Origin: Promethearchaeota archaeon
GTDB taxonomy: Archaea > Asgardarchaeota > Lokiarchaeia > Sigyniarchaeales > SOKP01
Length of the DNA: 33,565 bases
Reading direction: 5' to 3'
Assembly (NCBI GenBank): GCA_019894855.1
Contig: JAGXNS010000017.1
Coordinates: 1-33,565 of the forward strand
Made by a program: the position numbers and the translations under genes. The notes below the pieces were generated by a model that saw only the letters and a list, made by a program, of their open reading frames with translations, was not told where the DNA came from and made no database searches. Shown piece after piece: positions 25,857 to 33,565 of this stretch. How positions within the stretch are numbered: position 1 is the stretch's first letter; every line of letters starts with the position of its first letter.

Positions 25857-26186
25857 ATGAAGGTTGAGTTAGATATTTTAGTAATAGGTGCCCATCCTGA
25901 TGACGCAGAAATCGGGTGTGGAGGAACAATTGCTCATTACAAGAAAAGAGGCAAAAAAGTAGGGGTTCTAGATTTATCAAATGGAGAACCTACTCCATTC
26001 GGTACCGTTGAAAAAAGAATGGCGGAGGTTAAAGCAGCTTCTGAAATTTTAAATCTAGATCTAAGAATTACTTTAGACATAAGAGAACGCGCAGGATATT
26101 TGGGGTATCAAATTGGGGTAAAATACGCTGAGGGATTCATTACTACCAAACATTTAGTACTAGATTTTGAAAACTTGAAATTGTAG
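25857..26186 (+). CDS. BshB1-like/PIG-L N-acetylglucosamine deacetylase, internally shortened
   Basis: The 109-residue product matches both ends, but not the middle, of BshB1-type zinc deacetylases (PIG-L family, about 230 aa), which remove acetate from GlcNAc-malate in bacillithiol synthesis. Residues 1-75 have the Rossmann start LDILVIGAHPDDAEIGCGGT with the A-H-P-D-D metal/catalytic motif, then VGVLDLSNGEPTPFGTVEKR. From about residue 76 it continues directly with RERAGYLGYQIGVKYAEGFI, which is the family's C-terminal segment (GxxxGVKYAEGF). About 120 residues, including the HPDH-type third metal ligand, are missing, in frame. It may be inactive, a dimer-dependent mini-enzyme, or an assembly artefact. 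It lies between the GT2 gene (9-base gap) and bshC (10-base gap). Confidence 0.75.
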   Translation: MKVELDILVIGAHPDDAEIGCGGTIAHYKKRGKKVGVLDLSNGEPTPFGTVEKRMAEVKAASEILNLDLRITLDIRERAGYLGYQIGVKYAEGFITTKHLVLDFENLKL

Positions 26187-26196: not shown

Positions 26197-27906
26197 ATGT
26201 CAAACGATAAATTCGAAGACCCGTTAAAATATTACTTGTTATATGCCTTAGAAGGACAAAAATCTTGGGTTTCTGAAGGTATGAAAGGCCTTATACCCCA
26301 ATCTATGAGCGATGCTATTTTTCTTGCCAAGAAGGCAAACAGAGAAACGGAAAAAGATGCTAAAGATAATGAAATGAAATTAGCACTGGGAAAAATTTTC
26401 GAAGACACAAACAGGAAACATAATCTACTGACTGAGAAAGCCAAGAGACATATAGATAATTTTCTTACCGATAATAATAGCCTGAATTTAGAAGTTTCAC
26501 ATCAACCTAAATTTTTAGGTGGTGAAAGGTTCCTCTTTAACAAAATTGCATGTGGAGCAGCTTTCGCGAACCTTGAAAATAGCATAATTCCAATTTTTTA
26601 CGTCGCTGATTATGATAAGATTCATTCAGAATTAATAAAAACTAAATTCTCTCAAAGCGATTCTCCCAATGGATTTTCAATTTCAATAAAACCTGAAATA
26701 GAAAAGGAATTTCTTGGGATGAGAATTAAAAATCTTCCGCTACCAACTGTTTCTTATCTCATGGAACAATTTCAAGAAATTAGAAAAAAATACAGTAATT
26801 CTATTAATTCCAGTTTAGATAATAATTGGCATAAAAAGCTATTAGAAGAACGGTTAGAGGAAGCGCTTCGGTTAATCAAAATAGCCCACAATAATGCTGA
26901 GAACTATACAGATTGGTTCATTAACATAATAGGGACAATTTCCAATGTTATCTTTGATCATGGCTATCTTTTCATTTCTGCTTCAGATTTAGAATATAAG
27001 AAGCTATTAACACCATTTTATGAGACTTTATTAGAGAATCAAAGCATGTATGTTAATACTTACATAGATTTAAAAAATCAATTTATTGAGCATAATATTC
27101 GCCCTCCATTAAGAGAGATTCGACGTGACTTTGTCCCTTTTTTTTATGAGTGCGATAACGAACAATGTAACTGCAGAAGATTGGAATTAACTGGTCAAGA
27201 TTATACCTCAATGATCCATGTTAAATGTGAGTGCGATCAATGCGGGAATTTAATAGATTTTAGTCTCGAAAAGGATAGCCCCGATCTTTCTGAGCATGTC
27301 GCTTTTTTTACTCCTAGAGTTGAATCCCGACAATATTTAGTTTCAAAAACTATCAAACCAGCAATACATATTGCAGGTACTGGTGAGGCAAGATATTATA
27401 CAATGGGAATCCCGTTAATTAAACAGTTTGACAAAACAATTTCTTTACCAGTTATTTATTTTTACAATAAAATAACAATGAATACCTTTATAACTAGGAA
27501 CCTGGAACAAGATTTAGTCAAGTTAAATATACCACACTTTTTAGACAACATTAAAGGTCTTATGAAAAATCTTGGGAAGTTTAGTAAATTAACCAATAAA
27601 CCCAAGGATTCTCCTCAAGACAGAGCTAAAATATTAGAACTCTTAACAAATTTTAAATCTTACATGGTGCAACTTGAAAACATCTTAGTAAATATCCAAG
27701 CAACAGATATACCTTCAGAGGATAAAAATACAATCGGAAGTTATTTGAGTAATATGTTCGGAAAAATTTCTAAAGAAAAACATGGGCAAGAAGTAGTATT
27801 TCATTGGTTAGATTTATGTTTAAAAAACGGCTTCTCAAATTTCTTTACAGATCATATGCGAATTTATAAACCGTGGCTTCCGCCTGGAATGGAGATTTTT
27901 CTCTAA
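26197..27906 (+). CDS. bshC: BshC-like cysteine-adding enzyme (bacillithiol-type thiol biosynthesis)
   Basis: A 569-residue protein resembling BshC, which adds cysteine to glucosaminyl-malate to complete bacillithiol. Matching points are LEVSHQPKFLGGERFLFNKI (the G-Q-Q-x-G-L-x-G-P-x-x-x-x-x-K segment of known BshC), IIPIFYVADYDKIHSEL (I-P-I-F-W-V-A-x-E-D-H-D), and the C-terminal FFTPRVESRQYLVSKTIKPA followed by HIAGTGEARYYT (the L-P-T-x-A-x-I-x-G-P-G-E-x-x-Y-W segment). Unusually, there is a cysteine cluster in the middle: Cys319, 324 and 326, then Cys344, 346 and 349, like a zinc ribbon. It directly follows the BshB-like gene with an overlapping ribosome-binding site. The call rests on motif alignment by eye; the actual substrate in archaea may not be GlcN-malate. 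Confidence 0.8.
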   Translation: MSNDKFEDPLKYYLLYALEGQKSWVSEGMKGLIPQSMSDAIFLAKKANRETEKDAKDNEMKLALGKIFEDTNRKHNLLTEKAKRHIDNFLTDNNSLNLEVSHQPKFLGGERFLFNKIACGAAFANLENSIIPIFYVADYDKIHSELIKTKFSQSDSPNGFSISIKPEIEKEFLGMRIKNLPLPTVSYLMEQFQEIRKKYSNSINSSLDNNWHKKLLEERLEEALRLIKIAHNNAENYTDWFINIIGTISNVIFDHGYLFISASDLEYKKLLTPFYETLLENQSMYVNTYIDLKNQFIEHNIRPPLREIRRDFVPFFYECDNEQCNCRRLELTGQDYTSMIHVKCECDQCGNLIDFSLEKDSPDLSEHVAFFTPRVESRQYLVSKTIKPAIHIAGTGEARYYTMGIPLIKQFDKTISLPVIYFYNKITMNTFITRNLEQDLVKLNIPHFLDNIKGLMKNLGKFSKLTNKPKDSPQDRAKILELLTNFKSYMVQLENILVNIQATDIPSEDKNTIGSYLSNMFGKISKEKHGQEVVFHWLDLCLKNGFSNFFTDHMRIYKPWLPPGMEIFL

Positions 27907-30610: not shown

Positions 30611-31483
30611 TTATAAACCAAGTTTTTCTAACGTGGATTTCAATCGAACTCTGTGAAATTTCAAGCCGATTTCGTCTGGAGTGAAGCCCATCGCTAATGC
30701 GTAAAGCTCTGTGATATACAGCGCAGGAATATTGTATTCGGTCTCGTATTTCTTGCCTAAATCTCGTTGTCTCGTGTCGAACTGTTGATAACACGCTGGA
30801 CAATTTACAGCAATCACGTCTGCGCCTGATTTTTTGATGGCGTCCATCTTAATCTTTAGGTTTGCAAACCCGTGTTCCTCGTAAGCATTTGTCACAGCAC
30901 TCCCGCAGCATAAGATCTCCTCTCCGTAATCAACAACCGTTGCTCCGCTTGCTTCTACGAGCTTCTTTAGCGTAGTTGGTCTCATAGGATCGTCGGATTC
31001 CATCCATTCTGCAGGTCGCATATAGTGACACCCAGGATGAACAGCAACTTTTAGACCGTCAAGTGGCTTAGTAATCGCTTCCTTGACTTTGTCTAATTTA
31101 TCGCTCAAAACATCTACGAAGTGCAAAATATCTTGTGTGCCTTTATATTCTTTCCCGATCTTAGCGAGCTCTTTATTGACCTTATCCATTTTCCATGAAT
31201 CGTGTTTTAATTGATGTTGAACGCCTCTGAGAGTGTTGCTACAGCCATTACATAGAGAAATTATATCTTTTCCTTCGGCTTCCGCTAAACACAGATTTCT
31301 CGCACCAATTGCTAGCCAGGCGTCGTTGTCAAACGATTTCATACCCGTAGGATCTGGGCAACAAGAGAAATTCGTTTGTGAAGTCTCAATTCCAACTTTA
31401 TCAAAAACTTTTCTAGATGCCGCTTCAATATAAGGAATACGATTTCCTATGGTACAACCTTCAAACATTTTATATTCTGTCAT
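30611..31483 (-). CDS. hdrB: heterodisulfide reductase subunit B (HdrB-type)
   Basis: HdrB carries the noncubane [4Fe-4S] clusters that reduce a disulfide (CoM-S-S-CoB in methanogens) in flavin-based electron bifurcation with HdrA, HdrC and MvhADG/Vhu. Both CCG domains are complete. The first has Cys10 (EGCTIGNR), Cys41-42 (SCCPDPTG), and Cys78 and Cys81 (LCNGC). The second has Cys152 (HPGCHYMRP), Cys192-193 (LCCGSAVTN), and Cys228 and Cys231 (NCPACYQ). The 290-residue length is normal. AGGAGG lies 11 bases before the ATG and overlaps the TAG stop of hdrC, so the two are probably translationally coupled. The true disulfide substrate in a non-methanogen is unknown. It is the last gene of the vhuA-vhuU-hdrC-hdrB operon. 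Confidence 0.95.
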   Translation of the reverse strand: MTEYKMFEGCTIGNRIPYIEAASRKVFDKVGIETSQTNFSCCPDPTGMKSFDNDAWLAIGARNLCLAEAEGKDIISLCNGCSNTLRGVQHQLKHDSWKMDKVNKELAKIGKEYKGTQDILHFVDVLSDKLDKVKEAITKPLDGLKVAVHPGCHYMRPAEWMESDDPMRPTTLKKLVEASGATVVDYGEEILCCGSAVTNAYEEHGFANLKIKMDAIKKSGADVIAVNCPACYQQFDTRQRDLGKKYETEYNIPALYITELYALAMGFTPDEIGLKFHRVRLKSTLEKLGL

Positions 31484-31498
31484 TTTTTATCATTCCTC

Positions 31499-32014
31499 CT
31501 ATTTTAGCTTTTTATCTACTCCAATATTTTTTAATAAGGTTTGGAATTCACTAACATCTGGTTCCGCAACAGCGGGTAGACCCAATTGTTCTCGTCTACG
31601 CTCTATAGCAGGCTGAGTAGGAATCGCCTTCGCACTGTCAAAAATTGCTTTTGCTTGCGAATAAATAAAATCAGGCGCATCCCCATTTGCTACACTTTGA
31701 TTTTTTAATAGTGTAAAAATCTCTGTTAATTCAATGTTCTGTGGACAAACCTCGTCGCATGTATCGCATACGGTACAACCCCAAATGGTCAAGGCGTCGG
31801 CTGAAAATATTGCGTCCTTATATCCTAACAAAGCATTAAGAATGTTACTTCTTGGATTGTATCCTGTAGTCGTATAGAAGTCAGTCGTTACAGCTGTAAT
31901 TGGACAATTATCTGCACAACGACTACATTGATAACAATACTTAATTAAATCAGACCCGATATGATAATCCATAACTTGTTTTCGAAATTCAAAATCTACT
32001 GTCAATTTTTTCAC
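31499..32014 (-). CDS. hdrC: heterodisulfide reductase subunit C (HdrC-type)
   Basis: A 171-residue iron-sulfur protein with two [4Fe-4S] motifs: CYQCSRCADNC (Cys27, 30, 33, 37) and CTVCDTCDEVC (Cys80, 83, 86, 90). It passes electrons from HdrA to HdrB. The later NILNALLGYKDAIFSADALT and SQAKAIFDSAK regions also fit the family. The frame begins with GTG at 32014 (GTGAAAAAATTG). Because GTGA is a ribosome-binding core elsewhere, a TTG at 32005 could be the true start, shortening the protein by three residues. The gene follows the candidate SECIS region of vhuU and precedes hdrB by 15 bases. Confidence 0.95.
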   Translation of the reverse strand: MKKLTVDFEFRKQVMDYHIGSDLIKYCYQCSRCADNCPITAVTTDFYTTTGYNPRSNILNALLGYKDAIFSADALTIWGCTVCDTCDEVCPQNIELTEIFTLLKNQSVANGDAPDFIYSQAKAIFDSAKAIPTQPAIERRREQLGLPAVAEPDVSEFQTLLKNIGVDKKLK

Positions 32015-32053: not shown

Positions 32054-32128
32054 TATTGGCTTTTACCCCGGGCAGGGGGCGTTGTATCCAATCTATTGTT
32101 TTTATTGGATATTCATCCTAAGCCAACA
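32054..32128 (-). ncRNA. candidate SECIS element of vhuU (structured 3' region)
   Basis: On the minus strand, UGUUGGCUU (32128-32120) can pair over nine positions (one G-U) with AAGCCAAUA (32062-32054). The stem encloses two hairpins. One is a perfect 8-bp UAUCCAAU/AUUGGAUA (32104-32111 with 32085-32092) with an 11-base A-rich loop. The other is a GC-rich GCCCC/GGGGU (32076-32080 with 32065-32069), a striking GC island in AT-rich DNA. The element begins at the last codons of vhuU and ends before hdrC, as expected for an archaeal 3'-UTR selenocysteine insertion sequence. AUGA and A-rich loop bases recall eukaryote-like SECIS features reported for Lokiarchaeota, but I do not see the full tandem G-A core, so its identity is inferred from position and structure. 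Confidence 0.5.
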
Positions 32129-32265
32129 TTCAACTTGCGAGAGTAAACCTCTTCACCGTTTTCTTTAACAACGGTTATGTGGGCTGCGCACGATAGTCAA
32201 CAATCGAAGCATCGCACAATCATTTCTAAAAGGTTTACTACACCTTCCGGTACTTCTTCGCTCAT
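32113..32265 (-). CDS. vhuU: VhuU-like selenocysteine subunit of split F420-non-reducing [NiFeSe] hydrogenase
   Basis: A 50-residue protein read through one in-frame UGA as selenocysteine (U). The start MSEEVPEGVVNLLEM is followed by IVRCFDCULSCAAHITVV, in which D-C-U-L-S-C-A-A-H aligns with the C-terminal D-P-C-x-x-C-x-x-H nickel-ligand motif of MvhA-type large subunits (usually EMIIRAYDPCLSCATH). Sec23 and Cys26 would bind Ni-Fe. Processing after His29 would release a 21-residue tail, as in other NiFe hydrogenases. The adjacent VhuA ends without this motif, so the site is completed by this separate peptide, as in methanococcal VhuU. The start is supported by GTGA seven bases upstream and a 28-base gap from vhuA. 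The stop is the UGA at 32113-32115. Without Sec decoding it would end after 22 residues, before any function. Confidence 0.85.
32197..32199 (-). other. UGA selenocysteine codon (Sec23 of VhuU)
   Basis: This in-frame TGA on the minus strand falls exactly at the first cysteine position of the nickel-binding D-x-C-x-x-C motif. The downstream sequence continues the family motif (LSCAAH), which would not be kept if translation stopped here. Confidence 0.85.
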
Positions 32266-32293: not shown

Positions 32294-33565
32294 TTAATCA
32301 ATCCAAGGGTCTGGTAATTTTAATCCTTCTAATGCTTTATCTTCAAACACTTGTTTGGCTACATGCATTAACGTCTTTTCAATTCCAGCAATGTTGTGAT
32401 TCGTCGCTACTAAGAGATTCGCTTTCTTACAAATTCCATCAGCATCAGACCAAATGTGGTACAATAAATTACCCCGTGGGGCTTCGGTCATACCTATCCC
32501 TTCTCCTTCTCTTGGCTGGACATCTAACGTTTTACAATCAGGATTCACAATGTCAGGATCCTGTAATAGTGTCGCAACCATCTCAATCGACTCAACTAAT
32601 TCAATTAATCGAGCCCAATGATAAGCAAAGGTGTGATGGGAAATTGGTCCGAGTTTATCTCTAAAGGCTGTAAGTGCATCATCTGCTAAAGGAGTTGCCA
32701 TTTTATCAGCACAATTTATCATTGCTAACGTGTTAGAACGATAAATACCCTCAGGATATCCTGCAGGCTTGTAATACATGTGTGTCGCATAAGAATGCTC
32801 TGGAATATGTTCACCAAGTGCGTCCAAATAGTTATGAACGTCGTAATCAATTTTCTTGCCCTCAGGAGTCACTATTCGAATATCTCCTTCGTAAATATCG
32901 TGTACACCATTTTTGGTCATGCCCAAATAATAAGTAGGAACAACTCCTATATTAGCCACAACATCCCAATAATCAGTGACGACTTTTAATCCGATTTCAA
33001 CAGTTTTCTTTGCATATTCGACTTGTTCAGGAATCATTTTCAAAAATTTATCCCGAGAAGCTTCCGACATTGGCTTTTTCATGCCTCCAACAATCGCAGA
33101 AACTGGATGAACTGATTTTCCTCCAATCTCCGCACAGAGTTTTTGACCGAAATCCATCATCTTCAAAGCCATTGCTCCAACATCTGGCATTTTACTAATC
33201 ACGTGAACAACATTCCTTAACGCAGGATCCGCAAACGGACCTAATAAGAAATCAGGTGCTGCGAGTGCGTAGAAATGTAGCGTATGGCTAGAATATTGTT
33301 TCGCATTTTGGAGTAATACGCGAAGTTTCCTTGCAGGTTCAGGGATTTGAACTCCCCAAGCATCTTCTACAGCCTTCGTGGGAGTTAAATGATGAGGGAT
33401 TGGACAAATTCCACAAATTCTAGGCGTGATTCTAGGTATGTGCTCACAATAACGTCCTTCAAGAAACTTTTCAAAAAACCTTGTTGGCGTGATGTTAAAT
33501 TGAGCGTCTTTTACCTTGCCATCATCTCCGATGACGATTCTTAATCCACCATGTCCCTCTAATCG
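32294..33565 (-). CDS. vhuA: F420-non-reducing hydrogenase large subunit VhuA/MvhA-like (N-terminus beyond window)
   Basis: This is the catalytic large subunit of a group 3c-type [NiFe] hydrogenase that, with Hdr, couples hydrogen oxidation to disulfide and ferredoxin reduction. The frame is open from the window edge (33565), beginning RLEGHGGLRIVIGDDGKV, the usual R-x-E-G-H start. The first nickel motif RICGIC (33404-33421) follows in PRITPRICGICPIPHH. Further family stretches are QYSSHTLHFYALAAPDF, a G-G-M-K-K-P segment and EAPRGNLLYHIWSDADG. A methionine at 33202 is internal and not the start. The chain ends KLPDPWID with no D-P-C-x-x-C-x-x-H motif. That second nickel motif is supplied by the next gene, vhuU, 28 bases downstream. 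Confidence 0.95.
   Translation of the reverse strand, partial: RLEGHGGLRIVIGDDGKVKDAQFNITPTRFFEKFLEGRYCEHIPRITPRICGICPIPHHLTPTKAVEDAWGVQIPEPARKLRVLLQNAKQYSSHTLHFYALAAPDFLLGPFADPALRNVVHVISKMPDVGAMALKMMDFGQKLCAEIGGKSVHPVSAIVGGMKKPMSEASRDKFLKMIPEQVEYAKKTVEIGLKVVTDYWDVVANIGVVPTYYLGMTKNGVHDIYEGDIRIVTPEGKKIDYDVHNYLDALGEHIPEHSYATHMYYKPAGYPEGIYRSNTLAMINCADKMATPLADDALTAFRDKLGPISHHTFAYHWARLIELVESIEMVATLLQDPDIVNPDCKTLDVQPREGEGIGMTEAPRGNLLYHIWSDADGICKKANLLVATNHNIAGIEKTLMHVAKQVFEDKALEGLKLPDPWID

What the first reader, a model, noticed from the sequence alone, without database searches (positions are those of the whole stretch)
32113..32265. Unlisted selenoprotein gene vhuU supplying half of a split NiFeSe active site
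A 50-codon frame with one in-frame UGA gives FDCULSCAAH, the missing C-terminal nickel motif of the adjacent hydrogenase. Standard gene callers stop at the UGA and miss it. VhuU-type split subunits are known from methanococci and selenoprotein hydrogenases have been reported for Lokiarchaeota. The D-C-U variant (Cys for Pro before Sec) is uncommon to my knowledge. This implies that the organism decodes Sec.
Basis: partly seen in the sequence, partly recalled or inferred. Interest (0 to 1): 0.85.

Follow-up and report, generated by a model that had tools for sequence, protein, structure and literature searches.

The report
Lokiarchaeal VhuU selenoprotein gene with SECIS
A tiny gene with a stop codon in its middle encodes the selenium-bearing half of a nickel-iron hydrogenase active site in a Lokiarchaeon; the kind of protein is already known, but almost all Asgard versions that were read carry an unexpected extra cysteine right beside the selenium.

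Summary
It encodes MSEEVPEGVVNLLEMIVRCFDCULSCAAHITVVKENGEEVYSRKLNVGLG, with UGA at 32199-32197 read as Sec23 and a second UGA as the stop. It follows vhuA, which lacks DPCxxC, and precedes hdrC-hdrB. The reading is well supported: UGA in 126 of 126 Asgard loci that passed a motif filter, purifying selection on both sides, three Cys homologues, and a covarying SECIS that begins inside the ORF and overlaps the stop. A model built from another Asgard family finds it here. The genome encodes SepSecS, two UGA-containing SelD, an archaeal SelB, a PSTK-like kinase and a tRNA-Sec with two inferred introns. In 12 loci vhuU sits after hdrB instead of vhuA, so it is a separate gene.

VhuU in Lokiarchaeota is published, so this is a new member of a known kind. 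The role of that Cys (selenosulfide switch, or a site freed from Pro) is untested. The founding 2016 paper could not be read.

The parts
32113..32265 (-). vhuU ORF: 50 residues with Sec23 plus UGA stop (32115-32113)
   Evidence: TGA=U translation; NCBIfam NF041786 VhuU E 1.5e-13, below its cut-off; solved chain 9sfi_M; homologues in 126 filtered loci
32197..32199 (-). in-frame UGA read as selenocysteine 23
   Evidence: TGA in 126 of 126 homologues that passed the motif filter; Cys (DCC) in three others
32054..32128 (-). SECIS element: lower stem 32128-32120 with 32062-32054 (5' arm inside the vhuU ORF), AUGA 32116-32113 overlapping the UGA stop, upper stem 32111-32104 with 32092-32085, A-rich apical loop, 3' AA of the core, side hairpin 32080-32076 with 32069-32065
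   Evidence: MFE -23.9 kcal/mol, z -2.96, 1 of 200 shuffles as stable; covariation in 58 and 40 homologues; model R2 from another family hits it at E 6.5e-6
32294..33565 (-). vhuA, large subunit without the C-terminal DPCxxC; 5' end cut by the end of the contig (about 10 residues missing)
   Evidence: NF041785 VhuA 451 bits, below its cut-off of 800, model 11-417 of 418; PDB 9sfi_g E 7e-119; ends LPDPWID; contig C79 is 33565 long
31499..32014 (-). hdrC-like iron-sulfur protein
   Evidence: TIGR03290 78 bits, below its cut-off of 160
30611..31483 (-). hdrB-like protein with two CCG domains
   Evidence: TIGR03288 277.5 bits, below its cut-off of 345; PF02754
21489..21731 (-). HypC-type hydrogenase maturation chaperone (same contig, about 10 kb away)
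   Evidence: TIGR00074 88 bits over cut-off 48

Best explanation
This is vhuU, a separate gene for the selenocysteine-bearing C-terminal piece of a split [NiFeSe] hydrogenase of the Vhu/Mvh-Hdr type in a Lokiarchaeon. SHOWN by sequence: VhuA brings the N-terminal nickel motif RICGIC and stops before the C-terminal one; VhuU brings D-C-U-L-S-C-A-A-H, with Sec at the place of the terminal Ni ligand Cys and Cys26 at the place of the bridging one; the UGA is conserved, the Sec machinery is present, and a covarying SECIS starts inside the last codons and overlaps the UGA stop. INFERRED: SelB with Sec-tRNA-Sec reads UGA23 under direction of the SECIS, whose AUGA lies 83 nt downstream, while the second UGA, inside the element, ends translation; VhuU folds onto VhuA as the last helix of an ordinary large subunit does; a HycI-type endopeptidase (one hit in the genome) may trim the tail after His29; the Ni-Fe site is split over two chains; with HdrB, HdrC and, not seen because the contig ends, VhuD, VhuG and HdrA it would couple H2 to ferredoxin and a disulfide. 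The tail NVGLG is conserved at least partly because its codons are the 5' arm of the SECIS. The clade-wide Cys before Sec has no demonstrated role.
For: Conservation and selection. Motif and family: NF041786 VhuU E 1.5e-13; solved chain 9sfi_M...LRAYDPX-YSCAAHM, and its partner 9sfi_g E 7e-119. Sec/Cys exchange: DCC homologues L182, L194, L197; the two with sequence behind the stop (L182, L194; L197 ends at a contig end) give no SECIS match with either model. SECIS: fold z -2.96; A1 (58 sequences) 98.5% of cells paired, 10 of 18 pairs with changes on both sides, 0 of 500 shuffles as high on any of five measures; A2 (40 sequences) 94.2%, 12 of 17 pairs, 0 of 500 on four measures and 17 of 500 on the fifth; one lower-stem pair joins the third base of a Gly codon to the 3' UTR as CG 26, UA 26, UG 4, other 1. 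Cross test: the model from A2 finds this element at E 6.5e-6 and 28 of the 42 Sec-vhuU loci that I gave to it, all 28 at the vhuU stop. Machinery. Separate gene: vhuU lies 29-116 nt after an hdrB-like ORF in 12 of 126 loci. Maturation: HypC, endopeptidase TIGR00072 67.5 bits over cut-off 47.45.
Against: VhuU scores 50.3 bits against NF041786, below its curated cut-off of 70, and VhuA 451 against 800, so neither is a member of the curated equivalog. PSTK is below its cut-off (167 of 290.5) and SelB just below the TIGR00475 cut-off (236.7 of 242.25). tRNA-Sec is not found by Rfam (the two hits are tRNA-Leu) or by ARAGORN unless both inferred introns are removed. The SECIS models miss 14 of 42 and 14 of 28 Sec-vhuU loci and both selD loci; in the window's genome model R1 finds only vhuU at a low E-value. 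In A1 the side hairpin hardly varies, so it gives no covariation there. This genome is a bin, 83.65% complete with 5.11% contamination. No protein or RNA evidence exists here.
Confidence: 0.93

Rival explanations
1. The UGA is a true stop and the frame is a remnant or chance frame.
For: Standard translation stops there; the curated VhuU cut-off is not reached.
Against: TGA in 126 of 126 filtered loci, purifying selection on the codons after it, Cys homologues at the same place, SECIS downstream, Sec machinery in the genome.
Confidence: 0.01
2. VhuU is not a separate subunit but is joined to VhuA by readthrough or frameshift, so that the large subunit is one chain.
For: vhuA and vhuU are 28 nt apart here, and vhuA precedes vhuU next to it in 112 of 126 loci.
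Against: In 12 of 126 loci vhuU sits behind hdrB; in 5 of these vhuA is seen further upstream. The solved 9sfi has the VhuU-type chain as 27 residues of its own. vhuU has its own ATG.
Confidence: 0.02
3. The second UGA (codon 51) is also read as Sec in part, giving a longer tail.
For: The second UGA lies in the same mRNA and the frame stays open for 19 more codons.
Against: In 11 of 126 loci the stop is TAA or TAG; in L118 and L124 a TAG precedes while the AUGA element is kept; the UGA lies inside the SECIS core itself, probably too near to be directed by it (inference).
Confidence: 0.02
4. The Cys before Sec has no function of its own: in split Sec-bearing chains the Pro of DPC/DPU is no longer needed, and Cys was fixed in Asgard archaea by descent.
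For: Split-type frames outside Asgard archaea have Ile (Methanopyri L269, a Euryarchaeote L300) or Phe (a Bathyarchaeote L298) there; within Asgard archaea Asn in one Helarchaeote and Pro in two Lokiarchaeota.
Against: Cys is kept in 123 of 126 loci and in 106 of 109 Asgard-type records of another, overlapping collection, and also in the three Cys homologues (DCC): more constancy than a free site would be expected to show.
Confidence: 0.5

Closest known systems
VhuU, F420-non-reducing hydrogenase selenoprotein subunit (NCBIfam NF041786; solved chain 9sfi_M)
   Same: Small separate chain with D-x-U-x-S-C-A-A-H, partner VhuA
   Different: D-C-U instead of D-P-X and R-C-F/Y instead of R-A-Y; score 50 of a cut-off of 70
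Asgard VhuU/FrhA selenoproteins of Huang et al. 2024 (PMC11227280) and Mariotti et al. 2016 (not readable here)
   Same: Same clade, same protein kind, eukaryote-like AUGA_[G/A]A SECIS, UGA stop overlapping AUGA (passages)
   Different: In the passages and the SECIS section that I read, the Cys before Sec, the side hairpin and the covariation with codon third positions are not mentioned; this may reflect what I could read
MvhA, intact large subunit of the HdrABC-MvhAGD complex (5odc_F)
   Same: VhuA matches 5odc_F residues 11-416 and VhuU its C-terminal 423-456
   Different: One chain with Cys, DPC; here two genes with Sec
Bacterial NiFeSe-type large subunits (found in Ammonifex L215 and a Bacillota bin L232)
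   Same: FDPUIGCAAH Sec motif
   Different: Single open frame with about 460 residues before the motif, Pro kept

Membership tests
VhuU (NF041786) | score over the curated cut-off of 70 bits | tested here: not met
   50.3 bits, E 1.5e-13, positions 2-42 of 45 (Sec given as Cys)
VhuU (NF041786) | small separate gene with in-frame UGA at the first position of [U/C]xxCxxH | tested here: met
VhuU (NF041786) | partner VhuA lacking the C-terminal nickel motif | tested here: met
VhuU (NF041786) | Pro before Sec as in the solved chain (a feature of that chain, not shown to define the family) | tested here: not met
   Cys in 123 of 126, Pro in 2, Asn in 1; DPX in 9sfi_M
VhuU (NF041786) | Sec and Cys as Ni ligands in the assembled enzyme | not testable with these tools
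   Needs spectroscopy or a structure
Asgard eukaryote-like SECIS | AUGA ... A-rich apical loop ... GA or AA core on two stems, near the 3' end of the gene | tested here: met
   own 3' core is AA, a variant listed for frhA in PMC11227280
Asgard eukaryote-like SECIS | directs Sec insertion in vivo | not testable with these tools
   Needs a reporter
Archaeal Sec decoding system | SepSecS, SelD, PSTK, SelB, tRNA-Sec in the same genome | tested here: met
   PSTK and SelB below curated cut-offs, but their best PDB matches are L-seryl-tRNA(Sec) kinase and archaeal SelB; tRNA-Sec only after in-silico intron removal

The most novel reading that the evidence does not exclude
Asgard split NiFeSe hydrogenases carry a conserved C-x-x-C-U-x-x-C site in which the Cys next to the Ni-binding Sec (and often the Cys three residues before it) forms a reversible selenosulfide or disulfide, a built-in redox lock that shields or gates the nickel in place of the usual Pro. 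In the same gene the codons of the cleavable tail double as one arm of a three-helix SECIS.
Probability: 0.18. Interest if true: 0.65.

Novelty: new member of a known kind. Interest (0 to 1): 0.42.

Why it matters
It confirms that this Lokiarchaeal Hdr-linked hydrogenase has a selenium active site spread over two genes, one of which can be lost in annotation because of its in-frame UGA, so that calls of 'incomplete' large subunits in Asgard archaea can be wrong. The Pro-to-Cys exchange beside the Ni ligand is a concrete, clade-wide change at a well-studied metal site and can be tested by mutation. The SECIS, with one arm inside the reading frame and covariation at synonymous codon positions, is sequence-level evidence of RNA structure in the lineage from which eukaryotic Sec decoding is thought to come.

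Tried and rejected
Rejected: tRNA-Sec hits of Rfam in the own genome are tRNA-Leu by ARAGORN, and the same search rings in all 14 control genomes, so its tally at E<=0.001 means nothing; the gene was found by position, next to SepSecS, from relatives. PF21131 (eEFSec domain 4) rang nowhere, controls included, so it says nothing; TIGR00475 then gave the SelB candidate. One search tested a mis-registered side hairpin and a lower stem slid by one column (both my errors); one search is the corrected count. One search read a wrong frame. Rfam has no match in the window at gathering thresholds, Pfam none for VhuU. Its pattern demands T at the second base of the codon after Sec, so it cannot see VhuU with Tyr there, as in 9sfi_M. 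Of 117 motifs the residue before the UGA was C 106, P 4, N 2, I 2, A 1, S 1, F 1. By record names, 109 are Asgard or unspecified archaeal bins (C 106, P 2, N 1); of the 8 others, two bacteria have Pro in single chains, I 2 and F 1 are archaeal short frames, and A, S and N (L235, L271, L302, bacteria) look like chance. Searches for print on the side hairpin (0 papers) and on a Cys beside Sec in hydrogenases (nothing apt in the listing) found nothing; Mariotti 2016 is not held, so absence from print cannot be claimed. No structure prediction was run: the tool folds single chains, and the question concerns a pair.

Full report
WHAT IS THERE. The frame lies on the minus strand, 32265 down to 32113. 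Read with TGA as U it gives MSEEVPEGVVNLLEMIVRCFDCULSCAAHITVVKENGEEVYSRKLNVGLG and then TGA. The Sec codon is 32199-32197. The terminator is a UGA too. The gene before it, vhuA, ends at 32294 with LPDPWID and has no C-terminal DPCxxC; its 5' end is cut because the contig itself ends at 33565. Behind vhuU come hdrC (32014-31499) and hdrB (31483-30611) (both below the curated cut-offs of their best models). The contig also holds a HypC chaperone at 21731-21489.

IDENTITY. NCBIfam gives VhuU at E 1.5e-13 for the small protein (50.3 bits, cut-off 70) and VhuA at 451 bits for the large one (cut-off 800). The best solved relative of VhuA is chain g of 9sfi (E 7e-119), and chain M of the same entry, 27 residues called 'F420 non-reducing hydrogenase subunit', aligns to VhuU with DPX where this protein has DCU. 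VhuU also matches the C-terminus of intact MvhA 5odc_F, residues 423-456, and VhuA the part before it, 11-416: the two genes together cover one ordinary large subunit.

CONSERVATION. In 227 genomes of the phylum, 207 have some match at E<=10. Of 130 loci read, 126 passed the motif filter; all 126 have TGA at the Sec place. Three loci (L182, L194, L197) have Cys there, RCYDCCLSCSAF in L182 and close variants in the others, with the histidine changed to Phe. pN/pS before and after the TGA is 0.086 and 0.160 in 61 loci of the window's family and 0.088 and 0.222 in 35 loci of another. A vhuA gene precedes vhuU next to it in 112 of 126 loci, but in 12 of 126 vhuU lies 29-116 nt behind an hdrB-like ORF (53-57% identical to the window's HdrB), and in 5 of these 12 vhuA is seen further upstream. 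The piece is thus a free gene and not an extension of vhuA.

SELENOCYSTEINE MACHINERY. The same genome (83.65% complete) has SepSecS over the cut-off, two SelD genes in tandem, both over the cut-off and each with an in-frame TGA in GU[SN]CK, a SelB-like factor of 494 residues whose best solved match is archaeal SelB (E 2.3e-87) and which has the archaeal SelB domain III, and a kinase whose best solved matches are L-seryl-tRNA(Sec) kinases (E 8e-33), though below the family cut-off. The tRNA-Sec is not reported by Rfam or ARAGORN. In four relatives (G136, G141, G143, G151) an uninterrupted tRNA-Sec with anticodon TCA stands beside SepSecS. At the matching place here stands the same tRNA with 28 extra bases in the anticodon loop and 30 in the T arm; ARAGORN calls tRNA-SeC(tca) only when both are removed. 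A T-arm intron of 31 nt in Lokiarchaeal tRNA-Sec is published (passages of PMC5330540 and PMC9499178), and PMC9723677 notes unusual insertions in some Lokiarchaeia (section 10).

SECIS. From inside the last codons to about 60 bases behind the stop the RNA folds into a lower stem, an AUGA/AA core, an upper stem with an A-rich loop and a side hairpin, MFE -23.9, z -2.96, 1 of 200 shuffles as stable. On 58 homologues of the window's family 98.5% of cells pair, 10 of 18 pairs show changes on both sides, and none of 500 shuffles reaches this; on 40 of another family, whose records are mostly named Thorarchaeota, 94.2% and 12 of 17 pairs, with 0 of 500 shuffles on four measures and 17 of 500 on the number of pair types. 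One lower-stem pair ties the third base of a glycine codon to the 3' UTR: CG 26, UA 26, UG 4, other 1. The side hairpin is kept in both families (97.1% and 96.9% of cells), but almost without variation in the first; in the second one of its pairs covaries (AU 23, GC 11, CG 2, GU 1, other 3). A model made only from the second family finds this element at E 6.5e-6 and hits 28 of the 42 Sec-vhuU loci given, all at the vhuU stop, 0 of 2 Cys loci that have sequence behind the stop, and 0 of 2 selD loci; the reverse test hits 14 of 28, 0 of 2 and 0 of 2, three of the 14 being near kin of the training set. In L118 and L124 a TAG stop comes earlier, while the AUGA element stays and is found by the model: AUGA is kept as RNA and not merely as a stop codon. 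That UGA stops overlap AUGA in Lokiarchaeal selenoprotein genes is already stated in PMC11227280 (passage).

THE D-C-U MOTIF. Before Sec stands Cys in 123 of 126 loci, Pro in 2 (L150, L175), Asn in 1 (L198); four residues before Sec stands Cys in 114, else Ala, Ser or Asn. In a second, overlapping collection of named contigs Cys is found in 106 of 109 Asgard-type records. The other large subunit of this genome has the usual DPC, two bacterial single-chain subunits have DPU, and archaeal short frames outside the Asgards have DIU (Methanopyri L269, a Euryarchaeote L300) and DFU (a Bathyarchaeote L298). So Cys is the Asgard rule, and Pro is not strictly required in split Sec-bearing chains. Whether Cys22 bonds to Sec23, serves the nickel or merely fills the site cannot be told from sequence.

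MECHANISM. Most likely SelB carries Sec-tRNA-Sec to UGA23 under direction of the downstream SECIS, the second UGA within the element ends the chain, HypC and its partners load the metal, the endopeptidase may trim the tail, and VhuU completes the split Ni-Fe site on VhuA. The first half rests on conserved sequence; loading, trimming and catalysis are inferred from the families.

NOVELTY. Asgard VhuU selenoproteins are known: PMC11227280 (outline, passages and section 14 seen) lists FrhA/MvhA/VhuU among five widespread families reported in Lokiarchaeia, and PMC11291895 (passages) names VhuU of about 50 residues in other Asgard archaea. PMC13188914 (passages) and PMC9723677 (passages and section 10) agree in general on Asgard Sec use. 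None of these passages speaks of the Cys beside Sec or of the side hairpin, but the 2016 founding paper and all supplements were out of reach. I file it as a new member of a known kind, with a clade-wide motif variant worth a test.

Noticed in passing
L036 (G000:C33), locus 3031-2881 minus; also L039, L040, L034, L037, L038, L047: tRNA-Sec with two inferred introns: anticodon loop plus T arm in this genome and, by eye, two relatives (L039, L040); D arm plus T arm in three others (L034, L037, L038), D arm alone in L047, none in L043-L046. The passages seen speak of a single T-arm intron in Lokiarchaeota; turnover within a genus looks fast.
   Followed up: partly
L019, L020, L022, L023, L027, L101-L103, L105, L112, L116, L130: vhuU relocated behind hdrB; some genomes have two vhuU genes, one behind vhuA and one behind hdrB (G130, G103, G099, G098, G153).
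   Followed up: partly
L182, L194, L197: Cys-type VhuU homologues with DCC and the His of CxxH changed to Phe; no SECIS match in the two that have sequence behind the stop. Possible selenium-free isoforms.
   Followed up: partly
L111 (G112:C49): vhuU with an in-frame TAA after HITVVDE, the rest of the tail and the SECIS still intact behind it: either an error or a sign that the tail is dispensable.
   Followed up: no
window 25857-26186 and 26197-27906: PIG-L deacetylase frame of 109 residues that ends early (matches profile 1-78 of 129), followed by a 569-residue protein without Pfam match; together they recall BshB/BshC of bacillithiol synthesis (recalled, not tested).
   Followed up: no
G000:C117:9765-12043 (L053, L054): Two selD genes in tandem, both with an in-frame TGA at the Sec site; neither vhuU SECIS model finds an element near them.
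   Followed up: no
L269 (Methanopyri), L300 (Euryarchaeote), L298 (Bathyarchaeote): Short VhuU-type frames with RSYDIULSCAAH (L269, L300) and RIYDFULSCAAH (L298); a VhuA relative (38% identical) lies on the L269 contig. VhuU outside the Asgards with other residues before Sec.
   Followed up: partly
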